Positions 46,726 to 58,221 of a stretch of DNA of 64,000 nt are shown here, piece by piece. How positions within the stretch are numbered: position 1 is the first letter of the stretch; each line of letters begins with the position of its first letter. The stretch covers positions 372,001-436,000 of the forward strand of contig DASZBM010000002.1 of the NCBI GenBank assembly GCA_035944135.1. The letters run 5' to 3'. The stretch is from Acidobacteriaceae bacterium. Lineage in GTDB: Bacteria; Acidobacteriota; Terriglobia; Terriglobales; Acidobacteriaceae. Both the position numbers and the translations under genes were made by a program. The notes below the pieces were generated by a model. The model was given only the letters and a program-made list of their open reading frames with translations, was not told the origin of the DNA and ran no database searches.

Positions 46726-48180
46726 CTAGGAGGTGTGATCGCTGTTTTGTGCAACACTTGGGACGATCACGGTGAAGACGGAACCCTGGCCGACCTGACT
46801 TGTTACCTGGATAGTGCCGCCGTGCGCCTCGACGATAGCACGACTAATGGCAAGACCCATGCCGGTGCCGGAACTGGATTCTGCCTGTGATCTGGCGCGG
46901 TAAAACCGTTCGAAGATCAGAGGCTGCTCGGAAGGTTCAATTCCGATTCCGCGATCCGCGACGCTAATGACCACGTTCCGACCGTTTGTCTGCGCGGTGA
47001 TGGTGATCGGGGTGTTCGGTTTTGAGTATTTGTCAGCATTCTCCAAAAGATTGCAGATGACTTTCTGGAACATTACCGGATCTGCGCGCATCTCCAGTCG
47101 TTCATCGATATTTATGACCAGGGTGTGCCGCTCCTCGACACCGGAGCATATCTGGAGGGCATTTGCGACAACATCCGCCACGCGAATCGGGGCGAAGTGC
47201 ATTTGAACCTGTTGCGCATCGAGCTGGGCCATCTCCACTGCCTCGGAGACAAGCTTGTTAAGGCGATCGCACTCTTCATCAATGATGCTGAGTAACTCGT
47301 ATTGCTGCCCGTTTTCGACACTGTTTGCCAAGAGCGCGGTGGCCGCTCCTTTTATCGACGTCAGCGGCGTTCGCAGCTCATGCGTGATGGAGTCGATCAT
47401 CAAGGTCCTCAGCCGCTCGCTTTCTTTTGCTGCTTCGTTGTGCGCGATACTCTCCAGAGCCTGAGCGCGTTCCATCGAAATAGAGATGAGGCTTCCTATT
47501 GCCTGTGCAGTTGCTTTCGATAGCGAGGCTCCGCGTAGCACCAATACGCCCTTCGGGCGGACTCCAGTCCTAATAGGGATAACCAGTTCGGAGACGTCGT
47601 CGCGAACATCCGATAACGTAGAAGCTAAGTTGTGGAGGTGCGGCAGCTCGATCTCCGAAGCTGTATCGCCGGCCTGATAGAGACGATCTCCATCGAGAAG
47701 ATAAAGCATGGCTGTTCTGGCGGACGTGACATCAAGAGCAGCATGAGGCACGTTTGCCCACAGGCTTCCGGCATGTTCTGGCTGAAGAAACTCCCGGCTT
47801 AAACGAAACAGCACTTCCAATTCGCGTTGCCGAAGCTTTGCGTCTCTGGCCTCGTCGCGCGCGCGTTGCGACAATCGGCTGGCTATGATCGCGGTTGTCA
47901 GAAAGGCAAGCAGTGCGAGCCAATTTTGAGGGTCCGAGATCGTGAAGGTATCGATCGGGGGGAGGAAATAGTAGTTGTAGAGTATTGTCGCTGCTACGGA
48001 GATGAGTACTGCATATCTGAGGCCCCATTCCGCTGCGAGAACGAGGATGAGCAGGAGCAACGTGAGCGCAACGGTAGTGGTGTTGACATGAAACCAACGC
48101 CGGTACACGGCTACAATTCCGGCCAGAGCGCCGAAGGCAAGCAGCCAGCGTATAACGGAAATCGAACGGCGAGAGTGCAC
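46726..48180 (-). CDS. kdpD: Sensor histidine kinase, C-terminal half of split KdpD
   Basis: Membrane kinase part of the potassium sensor. Start taken at GTG 48180, seven bases after a TACAAT box; an open frame extends to 48273 over the divergent gene. The 484-residue protein has four closely spaced helices (DUF4118, about residues 8-100, with YNYYFLPPIDTF typical of KdpD), a GAF-like region (about 130-255), a HisKA domain with phospho-His in SITHELRTPL, and an HATPase with NLLENADKYS, DRGIGIE and GTGMGL. The cytoplasmic N-terminal KdpD and USP domains are missing and are encoded divergently. Confidence 0.9.
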   Translation of the reverse strand: MHSRRSISVIRWLLAFGALAGIVAVYRRWFHVNTTTVALTLLLLILVLAAEWGLRYAVLISVAATILYNYYFLPPIDTFTISDPQNWLALLAFLTTAIIASRLSQRARDEARDAKLRQRELEVLFRLSREFLQPEHAGSLWANVPHAALDVTSARTAMLYLLDGDRLYQAGDTASEIELPHLHNLASTLSDVRDDVSELVIPIRTGVRPKGVLVLRGASLSKATAQAIGSLISISMERAQALESIAHNEAAKESERLRTLMIDSITHELRTPLTSIKGAATALLANSVENGQQYELLSIIDEECDRLNKLVSEAVEMAQLDAQQVQMHFAPIRVADVVANALQICSGVEERHTLVINIDERLEMRADPVMFQKVICNLLENADKYSKPNTPITITAQTNGRNVVISVADRGIGIEPSEQPLIFERFYRARSQAESSSGTGMGLAISRAIVEAHGGTIQVTSQVGQGSVFTVIVPSVAQNSDHTS

Positions 48181-48187
48181 GTAGGAG

Positions 48188-48193
48188 ATTGTA
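48188..48193 (-). promoter_or_regulatory. Candidate -10 box of the split KdpD kinase gene
   Basis: TACAAT on the minus strand, seven bases before GTG 48180, inside the 16-base space between two divergent genes. The same bases lie beside the AGGAG ribosome site of the plus-strand gene. Confidence 0.5.
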
Positions 48194-48196
48194 CGG

Positions 48197-49330
48197 GTGG
48201 AGGCGAATAGAAAGTCGGCCGAGGACTGGCTTCTCAGTAGTGCGGAGGCTGAAAAGAAGCGTGGACGCTTCAAGGTCTTCCTTGGCTACGCGCCGGGCGT
48301 CGGTAAAACGTTCAGCATGTTGAGCGAGGGAGTTCGCCGCCGGAGCCGCGGAGAAGATGTCGTGATTGGGATCGTGGAGACACACGGTCGAGCAGTGACG
48401 GCCGAGCTTGCCGCAAAGCTGGAGCAGGTTCCGCGCAAGGAGATCAATTACAAGGGAACGCTGTTCAGCGAGATGGATGTAGACGCGATCCTTGCGCGCA
48501 TGCCGCAGGTTGCGCTCATCGACGAACTTGCACACACCAACATCGAAGGCAGCCGCAATGCGAAACGCTATGAAGATGTTCTGCTGTTGCTGGAGAAGGA
48601 TATAGACGTTCTCAGTACGGTGAACATCCAGCACGTGGAAAGCCTCGCACCACAGGTGCAATCGTTGACCGGCATCGCGGTCCGTGAGACTGTCCCCGAT
48701 TGGGTTCTTGACCGCGCCGACGAGATTGTCATGAGTGACCTGACGCCGGAAGCGCTCGTGACGAGGATGCGACGGGGTGATATTTATCCCATGGAGCGCG
48801 TCGAACGGTCACTTACGAACTTTTTCCGGCGCGGCAATCTCATCGCCCTGCGCGAAATGGCGCTGCACCGCGTAGCGCGTGCAGTAGACCGCAATCTGGA
48901 CGACTACGTGCGAAGGAAGAATCTCGGCCCACATTGGGCGGTGGCCGAGAAGGTTGCAGTCTGCATCAGCGCAAGCCGGCAGGCGAGAGACTTGATCGCT
49001 CGCGGCGCCAAGCTCGCACAGGCGCTCGATGCGGAACTGTATGTCCTGCACGTTCAGGATGGCCGAGATGAAGACGAAGAACGCAAGCGAACGCTGGAGT
49101 CCAGCCTGCAGTTCGCGAGGAATCTCGGCGCAGCCATTGTTCCGCTGACCGGCACAGACACGGCCCGTGTTACTGCGGCTTTCGTGCGGGAGAACCGCAT
49201 TACGCAGACTATCGTTGGACGTTCCGCAGTGCGTGGGCTTCGAAGCTATCTGTATTATCTGGCTATCCAGAAGTTCATGTCCGAAGCCCCGCATGTGGAC
49301 TTGCATATTGTTACGCAGGAGAAGCATTAA
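48197..49330 (+). CDS. kdpD: KdpD N-terminal sensor half (KdpD domain plus USP domain)
   Basis: Cytoplasmic half of the potassium sensor. The GTG has AGGAG nine bases upstream. The 377-residue protein contains the KdpD domain (residues about 22-230) with Walker A GYAPGVGKTFSML, GIVETHGR, ALIDELAHTNIEGS and VNIQHVESL. A universal-stress-protein domain follows (about 250-375: VAVCISASRQARDLIARGAKLA...). It stops before the membrane segment; the rest is the divergent gene. Together the two halves (377 + 484) equal a normal KdpD of about 890. It is followed two bases later by kdpE. Confidence 0.92.
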   Translation: MEANRKSAEDWLLSSAEAEKKRGRFKVFLGYAPGVGKTFSMLSEGVRRRSRGEDVVIGIVETHGRAVTAELAAKLEQVPRKEINYKGTLFSEMDVDAILARMPQVALIDELAHTNIEGSRNAKRYEDVLLLLEKDIDVLSTVNIQHVESLAPQVQSLTGIAVRETVPDWVLDRADEIVMSDLTPEALVTRMRRGDIYPMERVERSLTNFFRRGNLIALREMALHRVARAVDRNLDDYVRRKNLGPHWAVAEKVAVCISASRQARDLIARGAKLAQALDAELYVLHVQDGRDEDEERKRTLESSLQFARNLGAAIVPLTGTDTARVTAAFVRENRITQTIVGRSAVRGLRSYLYYLAIQKFMSEAPHVDLHIVTQEKH

Positions 49331-49332
49331 CC

Positions 49333-50067
49333 GTGCAACCATCTCACGGAGCGAAGATTCTTGTTGTTGATGATGAGCGGCAGATTGTGCGCATGCTCCG
49401 CGCGTCTTTGCAGAGCAGTGGATATGAGGTTGCGGTGGCGACCAATGGCATCGAGGCGCTGGACCGCCTCGCAGCGGATCACCCGGACCTCGTGATTACT
49501 GACCTTGCCATGCCGGAGATGAATGGACTTGAACTGACGCGGGCGATTCGACGAGGCGCGCAGACGCCGATCATCGTTTTGAGCGTGCGCGACAGCGACG
49601 GGATGAAGGTACAGGCGCTGGATGAAGGAGCGGATGACTACCTGACAAAGCCGTTCAGCATGCCTGAGCTGCTTGCTCGTGTTCGGGCGCAACTGCGCCG
49701 GCTGCCATCCGCGGCGGAACAGCAGAGCCGCATCGAGGCCGGTGACTTTGTCATCGATCGCGATGCGCATTCGGTGCTGTTGCGCGGTGATTCGGTTCGC
49801 CTGACGCCCAAGGAGTTCGATCTTCTCTGGTTCTTATCCCGATCTCCGGGACGCGTGCTTACGCACAAGGTGCTGCTTCGAGCGATCTGGGGGCCCGCAG
49901 GTGATGAGCAACCCGACTACCTGCGCGTGCTCATCGCGAATCTGCGCAAGAAGATCGAGCGCGATCCAGGCAAGCCCAGCTACATCCAAAGCGAGCCTTG
50001 GGTGGGATACCGATTTCTTCCATCGGGTCAAGACGCAACGGATGACGACACTCCTATAGCTTCTTAA
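49333..50067 (+). CDS. kdpE: Response regulator KdpE
   Basis: OmpR-type regulator expected to activate kdpFABC when phosphorylated. The 244-residue protein has a receiver domain with acidic pocket VVDDE, phospho-acceptor Asp57 (LVITDLAMPEMNG) and Lys in LTKPFSM, then a winged-helix DNA-binding domain (LTPKEFDLLWFL, and WGPAGDEQPDYLRVLIANLRKK). The start is GTG two bases after the KdpD-N stop, so translation is probably coupled. Confidence 0.94.
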   Translation: MQPSHGAKILVVDDERQIVRMLRASLQSSGYEVAVATNGIEALDRLAADHPDLVITDLAMPEMNGLELTRAIRRGAQTPIIVLSVRDSDGMKVQALDEGADDYLTKPFSMPELLARVRAQLRRLPSAAEQQSRIEAGDFVIDRDAHSVLLRGDSVRLTPKEFDLLWFLSRSPGRVLTHKVLLRAIWGPAGDEQPDYLRVLIANLRKKIERDPGKPSYIQSEPWVGYRFLPSGQDATDDDTPIAS

Positions 50068-50118: not shown

Positions 50119-51702
50119 ATGAAACACGCGGTAAGACTTTTCGTCTCCTCTGTTCTCATCTTCGCCGCATGTGTTGCGTCGGCCCAGAGCGCGCCGGAAG
50201 TGCAGCAAACGCCGGTCAGTATCGAGCAGCTACAGCGGGAGATTGACTCTCTTCAGCGCCAACTCAATGCGCTAAAGAGTCAAAGTGCGGCGACAGGAAC
50301 GCAGGCGTCCGCGCCACCGCCGTCTCTTCCCATCGGTACTGATGCGTCGGTTGCACGGCCCGCAGGCGCGCCTGAAGAGGGAACTGTTCAGACGGCGCAC
50401 ACGGAGGCGCCGGCGACACATCCTGCTCCTGATCGTCGTCACAGTGAGCCGTTCGCGTTCGCAGACTTCACGTGGTTGAACGGCAATCCGCGCACCAAGG
50501 ACACGCCATATGCGACGGAGTTCTTCACGCCGGAGATCCGCGCTGACGTGAGCTATACGTACGATTTCCGGCACCCTGCAGATGACACGATCGGCGGCTC
50601 CAGCGAGGTATTTCGCGCGCAGGAAGTAGTGCTCGACGATCTGGGCATCGGTGGCGATTTCCACCTCGATAACGTGCACGCGCGGGTACTCAGTCAGATT
50701 GGGCTTTACTCAACCGCCACGCCTCGTAACGACGCGAGTCCGACGCGCGGACAGTGGGACCTGGCTGATGCCTACCGTTATGTCTCTGAGGCAAACGCCG
50801 GATACCACTTCAACGTGCAGCACGGCCTCAACGTTGATGGCGGCATCTTTCTTTCCTATGTGGGTCTGTTCTCGTTCTACCAGTTTGATAACTGGGCGTA
50901 TCAGCCATCGTATGTGTCGTCTAATACGCCATGGTTTTTCACCGGCGCGCGCGTCCAGTATTTTCCGACAGAGAAGCTGAAGATTGAGCCGTGGTTCATC
51001 AATGGCTGGCAGTCGTACGGCCGCTTCAACAATCGCCCCGGGTTGGGCGGTCAATTGCTCTGGAGACCGAACGACAAGTTTCAGTTCATCGGCAATCAGT
51101 ATGGCTACGGCGAGGACGCTCTTGGCGTATCCAGTCGCACTCGCTATCACACCGATGACAGCATTGAGTACAAGTATCTCGACCGGCCGTACGGGCTCTT
51201 GAGTAAGGCTGCGTTAAGTCTCACGGGCGATGCCGGATGCGAAAGCGGCGGCGGCGTGAGTTGTCATGGCAACACCGTGCAAGGACCCAAGCAGAGTTTT
51301 CTGGGATTCATGGAGTACAACCGATTCTGGTTCAAACACGATCAGTACGGGCTGACACTCGGCGGTGGTCGCATCAACAATCCTGGCCGGTATCTTGTGC
51401 TGCTGCCGCCGATCAACGGCGCGACCGCGGCATCGGGTACGCAATACTTCACGGAGAATCCTGGCGATCCGTTCAAGGCCTGGGACGCTTCCGTCACGGC
51501 CGACTACATGCCGAGCCAATACATCACCTGGCGGTTGGAGTACAACCACCGCGCGGCAAACGTGCCGTACTTTGCGGGCCCAGGTGGAATTACTCCACCA
51601 AATGGAAACCAGGGTGCTCCCGGGTCGCAGGTTGAAGGCTGGAGTCCGGATCTTCGCAAATCGGAGAACCGTATGACTGCGGCGATTCTAGTGAAGTTTT
51701 GA
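50119..51702 (+). CDS. Outer-membrane beta-barrel porin in the kdp operon
   Basis: A 527-residue porin-like protein resembling the BBP2/OmpL-like barrel family. Residues 1-22 are a signal peptide ending ASAQ. Next is a short coiled coil (IEQLQREIDSLQRQLNALKSQ), a Pro/Ala linker, then about 400 residues of alternating strands (FAFADFTWLNGNP; ADVSYTYDF; RLEYNHRAANVPYF) ending in Phe, as barrel proteins do. It lies between kdpE and kdpFABC. It likely admits K+ across the outer membrane under limitation; this is inference from context. Confidence 0.82.
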   Translation: MKHAVRLFVSSVLIFAACVASAQSAPEVQQTPVSIEQLQREIDSLQRQLNALKSQSAATGTQASAPPPSLPIGTDASVARPAGAPEEGTVQTAHTEAPATHPAPDRRHSEPFAFADFTWLNGNPRTKDTPYATEFFTPEIRADVSYTYDFRHPADDTIGGSSEVFRAQEVVLDDLGIGGDFHLDNVHARVLSQIGLYSTATPRNDASPTRGQWDLADAYRYVSEANAGYHFNVQHGLNVDGGIFLSYVGLFSFYQFDNWAYQPSYVSSNTPWFFTGARVQYFPTEKLKIEPWFINGWQSYGRFNNRPGLGGQLLWRPNDKFQFIGNQYGYGEDALGVSSRTRYHTDDSIEYKYLDRPYGLLSKAALSLTGDAGCESGGGVSCHGNTVQGPKQSFLGFMEYNRFWFKHDQYGLTLGGGRINNPGRYLVLLPPINGATAASGTQYFTENPGDPFKAWDASVTADYMPSQYITWRLEYNHRAANVPYFAGPGGITPPNGNQGAPGSQVEGWSPDLRKSENRMTAAILVKF

Positions 51703-51733: not shown

Positions 51734-51838
51734 ATGTTTGACCTCATTTCGATGTTTGCTATATCGGCGATGTTTGTGCTGTCCGCAGCTTACGTGAACG
51801 GTTGCGAACGATTGAAGGGAAAGCGATCCCCATGCTGA
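51734..51838 (+). CDS. Small hydrophobic kdp-operon peptide
   Basis: A 34-residue peptide, MFDLISMFAISAMFVLSA then YVNGCERLKGK. One membrane helix followed by a Tyr-Val-x-Gly-Cys-Glu-Arg-Leu end. From memory, peptides of this shape precede kdpF in several bacteria. GGAGATGG lies upstream at a proper spacing, and its 3' end overlaps kdpF by seven bases. It may be a small accessory subunit. Confidence 0.65.
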   Translation: MFDLISMFAISAMFVLSAAYVNGCERLKGKRSPC

Positions 51839-51915
51839 ACGCGTTGCTCCTCACAATTTCGGTGGCTCTACTGGCTTATCTCGTATATGCGCTGTTGCGT
51901 CCGGAGAAATTCTGA
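51832..51915 (+). CDS. kdpF: K+-transporting ATPase subunit KdpF
   Basis: A 27-residue single-helix peptide, LLLTISVALLAYLVYALL then RPEKF, typical of KdpF, which stabilises the KdpABC complex. Its TGA shares one base with the kdpA ATG. Confidence 0.9.
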   Translation: MLNALLLTISVALLAYLVYALLRPEKF

Positions 51916-53678
51916 TGTCCCTGAATGGCTGGCTGCAAATCTTTGTGTTTATTGCCGCCGTGTTGCTGCTGGCCAAGCCCATGGGCGGCTACATGACACG
52001 TGTGTTCGAGCGGCGCAAGACGTTTCTCGATCCGATCATGGCACCTTGCGAGCGCCTTCTGTATCGCTTGACGGGGGTACATCCGGACCACGAGATGCGG
52101 TGGACCGAGTACACGATCGCCATGCTCGTTTTCAGCGCCGCCACAATGGTGCTTACCTATGCGGTCGAACGTTTGCAGCATCTGCTGCCGCTGAACCCGC
52201 AGCACCAGCTGGCGGTTGAGCCTGCGCTCGCGCTCAATACTGCGATCTCCTTCACGACGAATACCAACTGGCAGGCCTATACGCCTGAGTCAACTATGAG
52301 CTATCTGACGCAGATGCTCGGGCTGACTACACACAACTTCTGGTCGGCCGCGGTCGGGATGGCGCTCGCGGTTGCGTTCATTCGCGGTATCGCACGCCGG
52401 GAGATGAAGACGCTCGGCAACTTCTGGGTGGACCTTACACGCGGAACGCTGTGGGTACTGCTGCCCATCTCCATCGTCTTTTCGCTTGCGCTTGTATCGC
52501 AGGGCGTGGTGCAGAACTTCCGGCCCTACGATACTGCGAAGCTGGTCGAGCCCCAGAAGGTGACCGGGACAGACGGCAAGACGCAACTTGTCACGACGCA
52601 AACCATCGCGCAAGGACCAGTGGCGTCGCAGGAAGCCATTAAGATGCTTGGCACGAACGGTGGTGGATTCTTCAATGCCAATAGCGCGCATCCGTTTGAA
52701 AATCCCACCCCGCTCTCCAACCTGCTGCAGATGATCTCGATCTTCCTATTGCCTGCCGGCCTGGCAATCGCACTGGGGCAAATGGTGGGCTCGCCAAAGC
52801 ATGGCTGGGCCGTGCTCGCGGCGATGGTGGTGCTGTGGTTCGCGGGGACGACGACATGCTACTGGGCGGAGTCACAACCCAATCCGCTGCTGCACGGCGT
52901 GGACCAACACGTGTCCGTGATGCAGGCCGGCGGCAATATGGAGGGTAAAGAGGTTCGCTTCGGTATTGCAAACTCTGCGCTGTTCGCGACGGTTACGACA
53001 GATGCAAGTTGCGGAGCCGTGAACGGCATGCATGACAGTTTCATGCCTCTTGGTGGCATGGTGCCCATGGTCAACATCCTGCTCGGGGAGATCGTTTTCG
53101 GCGGCGTCGGCGCGGGTTTGTACGGCATGCTGATGTTTGTCGTGGTTTCCGTGTTCATCGCCGGCCTCATGGTGGGACGAACGCCGGAATATCTGGGCAA
53201 GAAGATCGAAGCCTATGACGTGCAAATGAGCATGCTATACCTGCTCATTTTCCCTCTGATCATCCTGAGCTTCGCCGCGGTAACGGTGTCGATGCCGAAT
53301 CTCGGCTTGAGCAGTCTCGCGAATCATGGGCCGCACGGGTTGAGCGAAATCCTGTACGCATACAGTTCCGCTACAGGGAACAACGGCTCGGCGTTCGCCG
53401 GCCTGAACGCCAACACTCATTGGTATAACTACTCGCTTGCCGTGGCGATGTTCTTCGGCAGGTTCATGATGGCGATTCCGATGCTCGCCCTGGCTGGAAG
53501 CCTGGTGCAAAAGAAAATTGCGCCTGCCTCTGTGGGCACATTCCCGGTGACGACACCGCTGTTCACCGTGTTGCTCATCGGAGTCATCCTGATTGTTGGG
53601 GCCCTAACCTTTTTCTGCGCGCTCTCGCTTGGTCCCGTGCTGGAGCACCTGTTGCTGCGTGCGGGCAACGTCTTCTGA
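51915..53678 (+). CDS. kdpA: K+-transporting ATPase subunit KdpA
   Basis: Potassium-selective channel-like subunit of the high-affinity Kdp pump. The 587-residue length and about ten helices fit. The selectivity-filter repeats are visible, for example [11 protein letters not shown] and [19 protein letters not shown]. The C-terminus ends in a long helix ([15 protein letters not shown]). It overlaps kdpF by one base and precedes kdpB by 14. Confidence 0.97.
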
Positions 53679-53692
53679 CTGAAAGGAAGCTG

Positions 53693-55732
53693 ATGGCCAC
53701 ACAAGCCAAACGTTGGTCACTTTTCGATGCCGCTATTGTTCGTCGCGCGTTCATCGACGCTCTTGCCAAGCTCAACCCACGCACGATGATGCGAAACCCC
53801 GTAATGTTCGTGGTGGAGGTTGGCAGTGTCCTGACATCGGTGCTGTTGATAAGCGATGCTCTTGCGCGTCGCGGACACTTTGGCTTCAACCTCCAGATCA
53901 CGCTTTGGCTCTGGTTCACTGTGCTCTTCGCAAACTTCGCCGAAGCCATGGCCGAAGGCCGCGGCAAAGCACAGGCTGACGCTTTGCGCCAAGCGAAGTC
54001 GGAGACCACGGCCTACCGTGTCGTTCGAGATGCCATTGAAGAGATTCCGAGTTCGATGCTGCGTTCAGGGGACGTCGTTCGGGTCAGAGCAGGCCAGATG
54101 ATTCCTGGCGACGGCGAGGTGATTGAAGGTGTCGCCTCGGTAGACGAATCCGCGATCACCGGAGAGTCCGCGCCCGTCATTCGTGAAGCCGGCGGTGACC
54201 GCTCGGCTGTCACCGGCGGAACGCGCGTGCTTTCAGATGTGATCGTCATCCGCATTACTTCGAACCCGGGCGAGACCTTTCTGGATCGGATGATCGCGCT
54301 GGTCGAAGGTGCTGAACGCCAGAAGACACCGAACGAGATCGCACTCAACATTCTGCTTGCAGGGTTAACAATCATCTTCCTGCTGGCAGTTGTCACGCTG
54401 CAGCCATTCGCCGTCTACTCCGGTGCTCCCCAAACAATCTTTGTGTTGATCTCGCTTCTCGTCTGCCTGATCCCAACAACGATTGGAGGCTTGCTTTCGG
54501 CCATTGGAATCGCGGGGATGGACCGCCTGGTACAACACAACGTGCTGGCCACGTCGGGCCGGGCAGTTGAGGCGGCCGGCGATGTGAACACGCTTCTGCT
54601 CGATAAGACAGGCACCATCACCCTCGGAAATCGCCAGGCTTCGGATTTTTTGGCAGCGGCTGGGGTTGCAAAAGAGGAGCTGGCCGACGCCGCACAATTC
54701 TCCTCGTTGGCGGATGAGACGCCGGAGGGACGATCCATCGTGATCCTTGCAAAGGAGCAGTACAACCTGCGCGGCAGGGAACTCGCCCAACTCGATGCGA
54801 AGTTCATTCCGTTCTCCGCGACGACGCGTATGAGCGGGATCGAAGTGGACGGCCGCAGTATTCGTAAAGGCTCAGTCGACGCGATCAGAGCTTATCTGGA
54901 AGAGCACGGTTCACAGATGCCGGAGGAAGTTCACCGTACAGTCGAAGAGATCGCACGCAGCGGTGGAACACCCCTGGTGGTGGCCGAGAACGGTCGAGCT
55001 CTCGGTGTCATTCATTTGAAAGACATCGTGAAGGGTGGTATGCGCGAGCGTTTTGACCAACTCCGCGCCATGGGCATTCGCACCGTGATGATCACGGGCG
55101 ATAACCCACTTACGGCCGCGGCGATTGCCTACGAAGCCGGTGTCGACGACTTTCTTGCGGAAGCGAAACCTAAAGACAAGATGGATCTCATCAAGCGAGA
55201 GCAGGCGGACGGCAAGCTGGTAGCGATGACGGGTGACGGCACGAATGACGCGCCCGCGCTCGCTCAGGCAGATGTCGGTGTGGCCATGAATTCCGGTACG
55301 CAGGCGGCCAAAGAAGCCGGCAACATGGTCGACCTCGACTCCAATCCGACCAAGCTCATCGAGATCGTGGCAATCGGGAAGCAATTGCTTATGACACGCG
55401 GGGCGCTCACGACGTTCTCCATCTCGAACGACGTCGCGAAATACTTTGCCATCATTCCGGCAATGTTCGCTGGAGTTTTTCCGGTGCTCAACGCGTTGAA
55501 CGTGATGCATCTTCACAACGCTCAATCCGCGGTTCTATCCGCTGTGATCTTCAATGCGCTAATCATTGTCGCGCTCATTCCGCTCGCTCTGAGAGGCGTC
55601 GCTTATCGACCCATGTCCGCCGCTGCCATGCTTCGTCGCAACTTGCTCGTGTATGGTTTCGGCGGCATCATCGTGCCGTTCATCGGAATCAAGGCCATCG
55701 ACATGCTGATTACGGCGCTGCATCTTGCCTGA
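53693..55732 (+). CDS. kdpB: K+-transporting ATPase subunit KdpB
   Basis: P-type ATPase subunit that powers uptake. The 679-residue protein has the actuator motif TGES ([10 protein letters not shown]), the phosphorylation motif DKTGTIT, the nucleotide domain ([11 protein letters not shown]) and the hinge [16 protein letters not shown] precedes the ATG. Confidence 0.97.
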
Positions 55733-56602: not shown

Positions 56603-57307
56603 ATGAGATCGATAAATGCGGCCGTTTTGCTGGCTGGCATCGCGATAGCGGCCGGCGCACACGGGGATGAGATCGTTTCCGGAAGCGTCAGTAATCAGAA
56701 CCTGAATAGCAGTGTCTGCTCATCGAGCTCGTCGAGCTCAACGTCTATCTCGCTCGCCTGCGTCTCGCCAAGCGTAACGGGTGGCCAGGCTCAGCTGAAT
56801 GCATCGGTGACTCCGCTGACTGCGTCGATGCAGGTGAATCTCTCCTCGTACCAGAACCCCGCGCAACCCGGTATGTCGACGATAGCCGAGGCGAACCTCT
56901 CGTTCACGATTGACGGAACTTATGTGCTGACTGGCGGTACGGGGAACGGCACGGTGATCTGGACCGCTGATTCCTATAGATACGGCGAGGGCGGCGGGGG
57001 AGTGTTCGGGCCTTGCAGTATCACCATCGCCGGTGTGACCGAGACCTGTGATCTGAATGCTGGTGTCCCGCTGACCGGGACATTTATCGTGCCCTACAAC
57101 ACGCCGGTGTCACTGCTGTTCAACGCCTCATACTCTGCGGGATCGATTGATTTCGACGATGTTTACAGCGGGATGAACTTCAATATCGATCCGATGACCC
57201 CCACGGACATTCCGAAGACCTCCGAGCCCGCGACGTGGATGTTATTCAGCCTCGCAGCAGCGATGATCTTGTTCCTCTATCGAAGACAGGTGCGGGCCTC
57301 GCGCTAA
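56603..57307 (+). CDS. Exported protein with PEP-CTERM-like sorting tail
   Basis: A 234-residue secreted protein. The N-terminal signal (AAVLLAGIAIAAGAHG) is followed by a Ser-rich patch, SSSSSSSTS, and a beta-rich domain with Gly-rich turns. The end reads SEPATWMLFSLAAAMILFLYRRQVRASR-like: an S-E-P-A-T motif, one hydrophobic helix and a basic tail, as in PEP-CTERM proteins processed by exosortase. The first residue of the motif is Ser, not Pro. No exosortase is in the window. It converges with the next gene by four bases. Confidence 0.82.
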   Translation: MRSINAAVLLAGIAIAAGAHGDEIVSGSVSNQNLNSSVCSSSSSSSTSISLACVSPSVTGGQAQLNASVTPLTASMQVNLSSYQNPAQPGMSTIAEANLSFTIDGTYVLTGGTGNGTVIWTADSYRYGEGGGGVFGPCSITIAGVTETCDLNAGVPLTGTFIVPYNTPVSLLFNASYSAGSIDFDDVYSGMNFNIDPMTPTDIPKTSEPATWMLFSLAAAMILFLYRRQVRASR

Positions 57308-58221
57308 CTGGTCGAATTGCCGATCGAAAGCGGCAGCTTCAGGACCATCGTTGAACCTTTGCCTGGACCTTCACTCAGAGCGCGCACATCGCCTCCGTGT
57401 TGGCGCACGATCGTTCGAACGAGGAAGAGCCCGAGTCCTGTGCCTTTAATCTTCACGCGATCATTCGATGCCGCTCGATAGAAGCGTTTGAAGATGCGGC
57501 GCAAATCATGCGCCGGGATGCCGAGGCCGCTGTCGGTGATCGTGAGCACCGCCCAAGTATAGTGCTCGATCATAAGCCGGCATCGGACGTGCACGCCCTG
57601 CGGTGAGTACTTCACGGCATTATCCAGAAGATTCAGAACCGCTGTACGCAGGTCCTCCGGATTGGCTTGAACGAACAGCTTCACATTGCCGGGGACATCG
57701 TCCATCTGAATTGCCTCAGCGGGAAGATGATGCCGCGTGAGCGTAATCCCGATGCATTCCGCAACCAGCGTCTTCAGCTCGATTCGACTGCGTTGTTGCA
57801 CGCGCTCGCGCTGGCCAAGTTCGCCGGCTTTCAGCACCTGCTCCACAGTGGCGAGAAGACGGTCGGTATCTGAGCGCATGGTGGTGTAGAAGCGCTGGCG
57901 CTGCGAGTCATCGCCGGGATGACGTTGTAACGTGTCCAGATATAGACGGATGCTCGCGATGGGAGTTTTCAGCTCGTGAGTCACGGCATTGAGGAACGAA
58001 TCCTGGCGCTCGTTGCGGCGGATCTCGCGAACCAGAAAGACTGTGTTGAGAACCACTCCGGCGATAAGGATCGCGAAGAGAAACACGCCAAGTACGTCAA
58101 GGGCAATGCGGCGCCCGTTGATGTGCACCCACGTAACGTTCAACGCTATGGCCAGAGCCGTGAGGCAAACACCCAGCGTGATGAAGAAAGCGATGGCTCC
58201 GCGGCGGCGTGTGAGGTTCAT
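57304..58221 (-). CDS. Sensor histidine kinase (orphan)
   Basis: A 305-residue two-helix membrane kinase. Helices at about 10-28 and 41-63, then HisKA with SFLNAVTHELKTP, and HATPase with LLDNAVKYS, DSGLGIP and GTGLGL. No HAMP domain and very little periplasmic loop (about 12 residues), so it likely senses membrane or internal signals. No response regulator is adjacent. A TATACT box lies 11 bases before the ATG. Confidence 0.88.
   Translation of the reverse strand: MNLTRRRGAIAFFITLGVCLTALAIALNVTWVHINGRRIALDVLGVFLFAILIAGVVLNTVFLVREIRRNERQDSFLNAVTHELKTPIASIRLYLDTLQRHPGDDSQRQRFYTTMRSDTDRLLATVEQVLKAGELGQRERVQQRSRIELKTLVAECIGITLTRHHLPAEAIQMDDVPGNVKLFVQANPEDLRTAVLNLLDNAVKYSPQGVHVRCRLMIEHYTWAVLTITDSGLGIPAHDLRRIFKRFYRAASNDRVKIKGTGLGLFLVRTIVRQHGGDVRALSEGPGKGSTMVLKLPLSIGNSTS

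What the first reader, a model, noticed from the sequence alone, without database searches (positions are those of the whole stretch)
46726..49330. KdpD split into two divergently transcribed genes
The KdpD plus USP half (377 aa, plus strand) and the membrane/GAF/kinase half (484 aa, minus strand) together make one KdpD, but the second half is inverted and the genes are 16 bp apart. This separates signal input (nucleotide, K+ binding) from the kinase, which must then associate in trans. The tiny divergent space holds a TACAAT box for one gene and the ribosome site of the other.
Basis: partly seen in the sequence, partly recalled or inferred. Interest (0 to 1): 0.75.

Follow-up and report, generated by a model that had tools for sequence, protein, structure and literature searches.

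The report
Two-chain KdpD beside kdp pump
In this soil bacterium (a Granulicella-like acidobacterium) the potassium sensor KdpD is made as two separate proteins from back-to-back genes; this is an old, family-wide arrangement of a kind already published for the phylum, but here it occurs in bacteria that seem unable to make the second messenger thought to control the free half.

Summary
Window 48197-49330 (+) encodes a complete KdpD N-half (PF02702 + Usp, 377 aa); 46726-48180 (-) encodes a DUF4118/HisKA/HATPase kinase (484 aa). Their starts lie 16 bp apart, upstream of kdpE, a porin gene and kdpFABC. No full-length KdpD exists in the 99.85%-complete genome. It is not a one-off: the same divergent order was seen in 48 other genomes of the family, and its kinase forms an old clade separate from the C-halves of fused KdpDs. 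Split KdpD was published in 2024 as common in Acidobacteriota, with a different meaning: the N-half is a serine kinase that switches off the pump (KdpB-S162), the other half a histidine kinase for KdpE. So the halves need not bind each other. Comparative evidence favours separate jobs: kdp loci that lost the N-half keep kinase-KdpE-kdpABC, while a KdpD-N is retained in 131 of 132 pump-bearing genomes. New wrinkle: 108 of 135 genomes with KdpD-N in the order, including this one, have no detectable diadenylate cyclase, so the published c-di-AMP control of short KdpD cannot apply here. How K+ reaches the serine-kinase chain is open; docking on the histidine kinase remains a live rival.

The parts
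46726..48180 (-). Histidine kinase chain (484 aa): DUF4118 membrane domain, GAF-like region, HisKA, HATPase_c
   Evidence: invariant H267 and kinase boxes in 24 homologs
48181..48196 (.). 16-bp divergent spacer: TACAAT (- strand, 48193-48188) for the kinase and GGAG ribosome site (+, 48184-48187) for KdpD-N
48197..49330 (+). KdpD-N chain (377 aa): KdpD (PF02702) + Usp domain; atypical serine kinase motifs intact
49333..50067 (+). KdpE-like OmpR-family response regulator (244 aa), 2 bp downstream of KdpD-N
50119..51702 (+). BBP2-family beta-barrel porin inside the kdp gene cluster
51832..51915 (+). kdpF (27 aa, MLNALLLTISVALLAYLVYALLRPEKF), overlaps the kdpA start
51915..53678 (+). kdpA
53693..55732 (+). 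kdpB, with the TGES motif that holds the serine phosphorylated in E. coli
55742..56296 (+). kdpC
   Evidence: homology

Best explanation
This is a two-chain Kdp control system. The minus-strand membrane histidine kinase senses K+ and passes phosphate to the KdpE encoded just past KdpD-N, which switches on kdpFABC at low K+. The separate KdpD-N/Usp chain is a soluble atypical serine kinase that shuts the assembled pump off by phosphorylating KdpB in its TGES motif when K+ is plentiful. Shown here: gene content, intact catalytic motifs, absence of a full-length KdpD, family-wide conservation, separability of the two chains, linkage of KdpD-N to presence of the pump, absence of a detectable c-di-AMP synthase. 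Inferred from published work on other species: both enzymatic activities and their targets. Unknown: the signal that controls the serine-kinase chain here.
For: (1) Serine-kinase residues (Walker A GxxPGVGKT, Walker B DE, R190) are kept in all 47 fetched type-A relatives and the window; W39 is mostly another aromatic, F or Y. KdpB has TGES in the window and in 78 of 79 KdpB genes scored. E. coli KdpD 1-230 alone phosphorylates KdpB in vitro (PMC11018627). (2) KdpD-N tracks the pump: 131 of 132 KdpA-positive genomes of the order have PF02702 (exception G027, 54% complete), 14 of 18 KdpA-negative ones lack it; Fisher p = 2.5e-15, not corrected for relatedness. (3) In genomes that lost the local KdpD-N, the kdp locus stays kinase // KdpE-kdpABC (L230-L239, L242, L244-L248), with several apparently independent losses on the kinase tree (G084, G072, G102 and a 14-row clade); a KdpD-N persists elsewhere. 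(4) Of the pairs tested among proteins of 30 type-A loci, kinase and KdpE distances correlate best after controlling for KdpA and KdpC (partial r 0.57; kinase-KdpD-N 0.36, KdpD-N-KdpB 0.36).
Against: No biochemistry exists for these proteins. In E. [quoted passage not shown] One genome (G056) keeps a KdpD-N next to a kinase with no KdpA or KdpC, so KdpB cannot be the target there.
Confidence: 0.62

Rival explanations
1. The two chains re-form a KdpD in trans: KdpD-N docks on the membrane kinase, tunes its kinase/phosphatase ratio and in turn receives K+ control of its serine-kinase activity.
For: A paper titled as showing that E. coli N- and C-halves complement each other (Heermann 2000, known here only through reference lists); the E. 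[quoted passage not shown] The divergent neighbour arrangement is conserved across the family. Without a c-di-AMP synthase, some other K+ input to KdpD-N is needed.
Against: Kinase-KdpE-kdpABC persists where the local KdpD-N is gone, and the remaining KdpD-N is usually a distant one from another lineage paired with a different kinase. Distance correlation of KdpD-N with the kinase is no higher than with KdpB or KdpE.
Confidence: 0.3
2. KdpD-N acts mainly on KdpE, for example by stabilising the phosphorylated KdpE-DNA complex, as reported for E. coli KdpD 1-395.
For: KdpE follows KdpD-N directly in most type-A loci; E. coli precedent (PMC2714519).
Against: Some type-A loci have no KdpE next to KdpD-N (L081, L084, L086, L125, L128), and type-C genomes keep KdpD-N far from KdpE. 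Strict conservation of the serine-kinase site is unexplained.
Confidence: 0.05
3. A KdpD gene was recently broken and half-inverted in this strain (decay or assembly artefact).
For: None beyond the divergent layout.
Against: Same layout in 48 other genomes, catalytic motifs intact, separate old kinase clade.
Confidence: 0.01

Closest known systems
Two-chain KdpD (serine-kinase chain + histidine-kinase chain), described for Acidobacteriota and Chloroflexota in PMC11018627 (2024)
   Same: KdpD/Usp on one chain, TM/GAF/DHpCA on the other, KdpE and the Kdp pump present
   Different: The passages read do not discuss gene order or absence of c-di-AMP in this group; here the chains are divergent neighbours and the genome has no detectable diadenylate cyclase
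Deinococcus radiodurans kdp region (PMC5716572)
   Same: Truncated kdpD-N with the pump genes, separate kinase (C-half) on the opposite strand next to them
   Different: There the response regulator sits with the kinase and kdpD-N follows kdpBAC; here KdpE sits with KdpD-N, ahead of kdpFABC
Short KdpD of Deinococcus geothermalis (DgKdpD)
   Same: KdpD + Usp only, no kinase core; phosphorylates KdpB
   Different: DgKdpD is stimulated by c-di-AMP; no synthase was found here, and the Firmicutes Usp motif (A/G/C)XSXSX2N(Y/F) is not met (window CISASRQAR)
E. coli KdpD (fused)
   Same: Same domains in the same order when the two chains are read together
   Different: One 894-aa chain; the fused C-halves form a separate clade on the kinase tree

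Membership tests
Two-chain KdpD system (PMC11018627) | PF02702 + Usp chain without a kinase core | tested here: met
Two-chain KdpD system (PMC11018627) | Separate TM/GAF/DHpCA histidine kinase | tested here: met
   DUF4118, HisKA, HATPase_c; GAF-like region only from the model
Two-chain KdpD system (PMC11018627) | No full-length KdpD in the genome | tested here: met
   one PF02702 in the genome
Two-chain KdpD system (PMC11018627) | KdpE and Kdp pump present | tested here: met
Atypical serine kinase KdpD domain | Walker A, Walker B DE, adenine-binding W39/R190 | tested here: met
   all kept except W39, replaced by F, another aromatic, as in many relatives
Atypical serine kinase KdpD domain | Phosphorylates KdpB serine in TGES | not testable with these tools
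   TGES present in KdpB; activity not measured
c-di-AMP-controlled short KdpD (DgKdpD type) | Diadenylate cyclase in the genome | tested here: not met
   no PF02457 in the genome; the same search finds it in 37 of 150 genomes of the order and in 11 of 14 control genomes
c-di-AMP-controlled short KdpD (DgKdpD type) | Usp c-di-AMP motif | tested here: not met
   CISASRQAR lacks N(Y/F); the motif is defined for Firmicutes
NCBIfam NF038185 KdpD-like non-kinase potassium sensor | Score above curated cut-off (550 bits) | tested here: not met
   371.7 bits over model positions 3-372 of 373
KdpD/KdpE two-component pair | Kinase phosphorylates KdpE | not testable with these tools
   gene neighbourhood and distance correlation only

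The most novel reading that the evidence does not exclude
In the acidobacteria that lack a detectable c-di-AMP synthase, the free KdpD-N serine kinase has lost its known input and takes its K+ signal another way: by reversible docking on a histidine kinase (the DUF4118 kinase in type A, a HAMP-PAS kinase in type C) or through a new Usp ligand. KdpD-N would then be a portable module that works with unrelated kinases, in one genome even without a Kdp pump.
Probability: 0.3. Interest if true: 0.6.

Novelty: new member of a known kind. Interest (0 to 1): 0.38.

Why it matters
It shows that two-chain KdpD is the normal, stable state in a whole soil family, and offers a natural test of two questions the 2024 work leaves open: what controls the serine-kinase half when it is not tied to the K+-sensing domains, and whether the halves of fused KdpD ever needed each other. 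Lineages with and without a c-di-AMP synthase, and with the N-half local, moved or replaced, give ready comparisons.

Tried and rejected
Assembly or decay artefact: rejected, conserved in many genomes. Recent break and inversion of a fused kdpD: rejected on the kinase tree. c-di-AMP control of this KdpD-N: rejected for lack of a synthase; no c-di-AMP riboswitch in this genome either. Caveat: G117 has the riboswitch but no synthase was found, so the synthase search may miss some. Link between loss of the synthase and decay of the Usp ligand loop: type-A genomes with a synthase keep SS(N/S)P(A/V)(A/G)QY there, those without it vary, but the former lie in one clade and other lineages with a synthase lack QY, so this is one event at most and is not claimed. 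Distance correlations show no special tie of KdpD-N to the kinase; weak evidence. No complex of the two chains was modelled: the tool folds one protein, and a joined chain would be a changed sequence.

Full report
OBSERVATION. KdpD-N (48197-49330, +) is a full-length KdpD/Usp module; the minus-strand gene (46726-48180) is a DUF4118 histidine kinase with a GAF-like region in the model. Downstream on the + strand come a KdpE-like regulator, a BBP2 porin, a small membrane ORF, kdpF, kdpA, kdpB and kdpC. The genome (4.43 Mb, 99.85% complete) has one PF02702 domain, so no fused KdpD hides elsewhere. Close named relatives are Granulicella, Edaphobacter, Terriglobus and Bryocella; a genome of the same genus code (G136) has a contig of the same length as that of Granulicella mallensis X5P3.

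HOW WIDESPREAD. Of 150 genomes sampled in the order, 135 carry PF02702. Gene order in fetched loci falls into types. Type A, as in the window: kinase divergent from KdpD-N, usually KdpE, then kdpABC; 47 loci, plus G080 from coordinates. Type B: kinase-KdpE-kdpABC-KdpD-N mostly on one strand, in the sister family, elsewhere in the class and in other Acidobacteriota. Type C: KdpD-N behind a HAMP-PAS histidine kinase, away from kdp (21 loci), while the genome's kdp locus reads kinase // KdpE-kdpABC in nearly all cases fetched. Type D: one fused chain of about 900 aa in other families of the phylum. Three Rhizobacter loci found by the named-genome scan are also fused.

ORIGIN. On the kinase tree (quick method) divergent kinases, including those of type-C genomes, form one clade, apart from the clade of canonical fused C-halves that holds E. 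coli KdpD. On the tree of the KdpD domain alone type A is one clade and type C another, nested among type-B and two fused sequences. So the window's pair did not arise by a local break of a fused gene. The direction, ancestral fission or ancestral separate genes, is not settled here; PMC11018627 argues for separate chains that later fused.

FUNCTION. PMC11018627 showed that the E. [quoted passage not shown] The residues needed are intact in the window and all type-A relatives, and KdpB keeps TGES. KdpD-N is present in 131 of 132 genomes with KdpA and absent from 14 of 18 without it; the four exceptions without KdpA are a locus at a contig edge (G047), a locus with a kdpB remnant (G103), a 73%-complete genome (G023) and G056. 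Loss of KdpD-N from the kdp locus happened several times while kinase, KdpE and pump stayed together, and each time another or a relocated KdpD-N is present. This fits two separable enzymes serving one pump better than an obligate complex.

THE OPEN POINT. The published input for short KdpD chains is c-di-AMP. The window genome has no diadenylate cyclase; in the order 37 of 150 genomes have one, and 108 of the 135 KdpD-N genomes do not, although most other Acidobacteriota do (269 of 347). The c-di-AMP riboswitch is also nearly absent (3 of 150); one of those three, G117, has no detected synthase, so some false negatives are possible. The Usp loop does not match the Firmicutes c-di-AMP motif. 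Which signal reaches the serine kinase is therefore unknown. Docking on the membrane kinase is attractive because E. coli halves are known to interact, but distance correlations do not single it out.

EXPRESSION. The divergent spacer has a TACAAT box 7 nt before the kinase start, and a ribosome site for KdpD-N on the other strand; both recur in near relatives. A leaderless kinase transcript is the likely reading, unproven; the consensus scan by itself is at chance level.

VERDICT. The absence of c-di-AMP synthase is the part worth following.

Noticed in passing
window 51734-51838 (+): Unannotated 34-aa membrane ORF (MFDLISMFAISAMFVLSAAYVNGCERLKGKRSPC) between the porin gene and kdpF; ORFs with the same Y..(G/A)C pattern gave 29 matches ahead of kdpF-like sequence in the fetched loci.
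   Followed up: partly
L095, L116, L122, L135, L150-L153, L156, L159, L170, L173: Tandem KdpD-N genes; the weaker copy forms its own clade and nearly always has Walker B DE changed to DG, a likely inactive serine kinase.
   Followed up: partly
L089-L094, L096-L098, L110-L112, L127, L129-L131, L136, L137, L139, L140, L146: KdpD-N directly behind a HAMP-PAS histidine kinase away from kdp; the same kinase family lies next to KdpD-N in kdp clusters of L164, L167, L172 and L177.
   Followed up: partly
L127 (genome G056): KdpD-N with intact catalytic motifs and a HAMP-PAS kinase in a genome with no KdpA or KdpC.
   Followed up: partly
L196:7940-9622 (-): KdpD-N/Usp fused to a PTS EIIA domain.
   Followed up: no
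L144 (genome G103): Type-A regulators intact beside a kdpB remnant; no KdpA or KdpC found: apparent recent pump loss.
   Followed up: no
window 57304-58221 (-): Second histidine kinase (305 aa, HisKA + HATPase_c) about 1 kb past kdpC on the opposite strand, no response regulator found beside it.
   Followed up: no
genome G117: c-di-AMP riboswitch present but no diadenylate cyclase detected.
   Followed up: no
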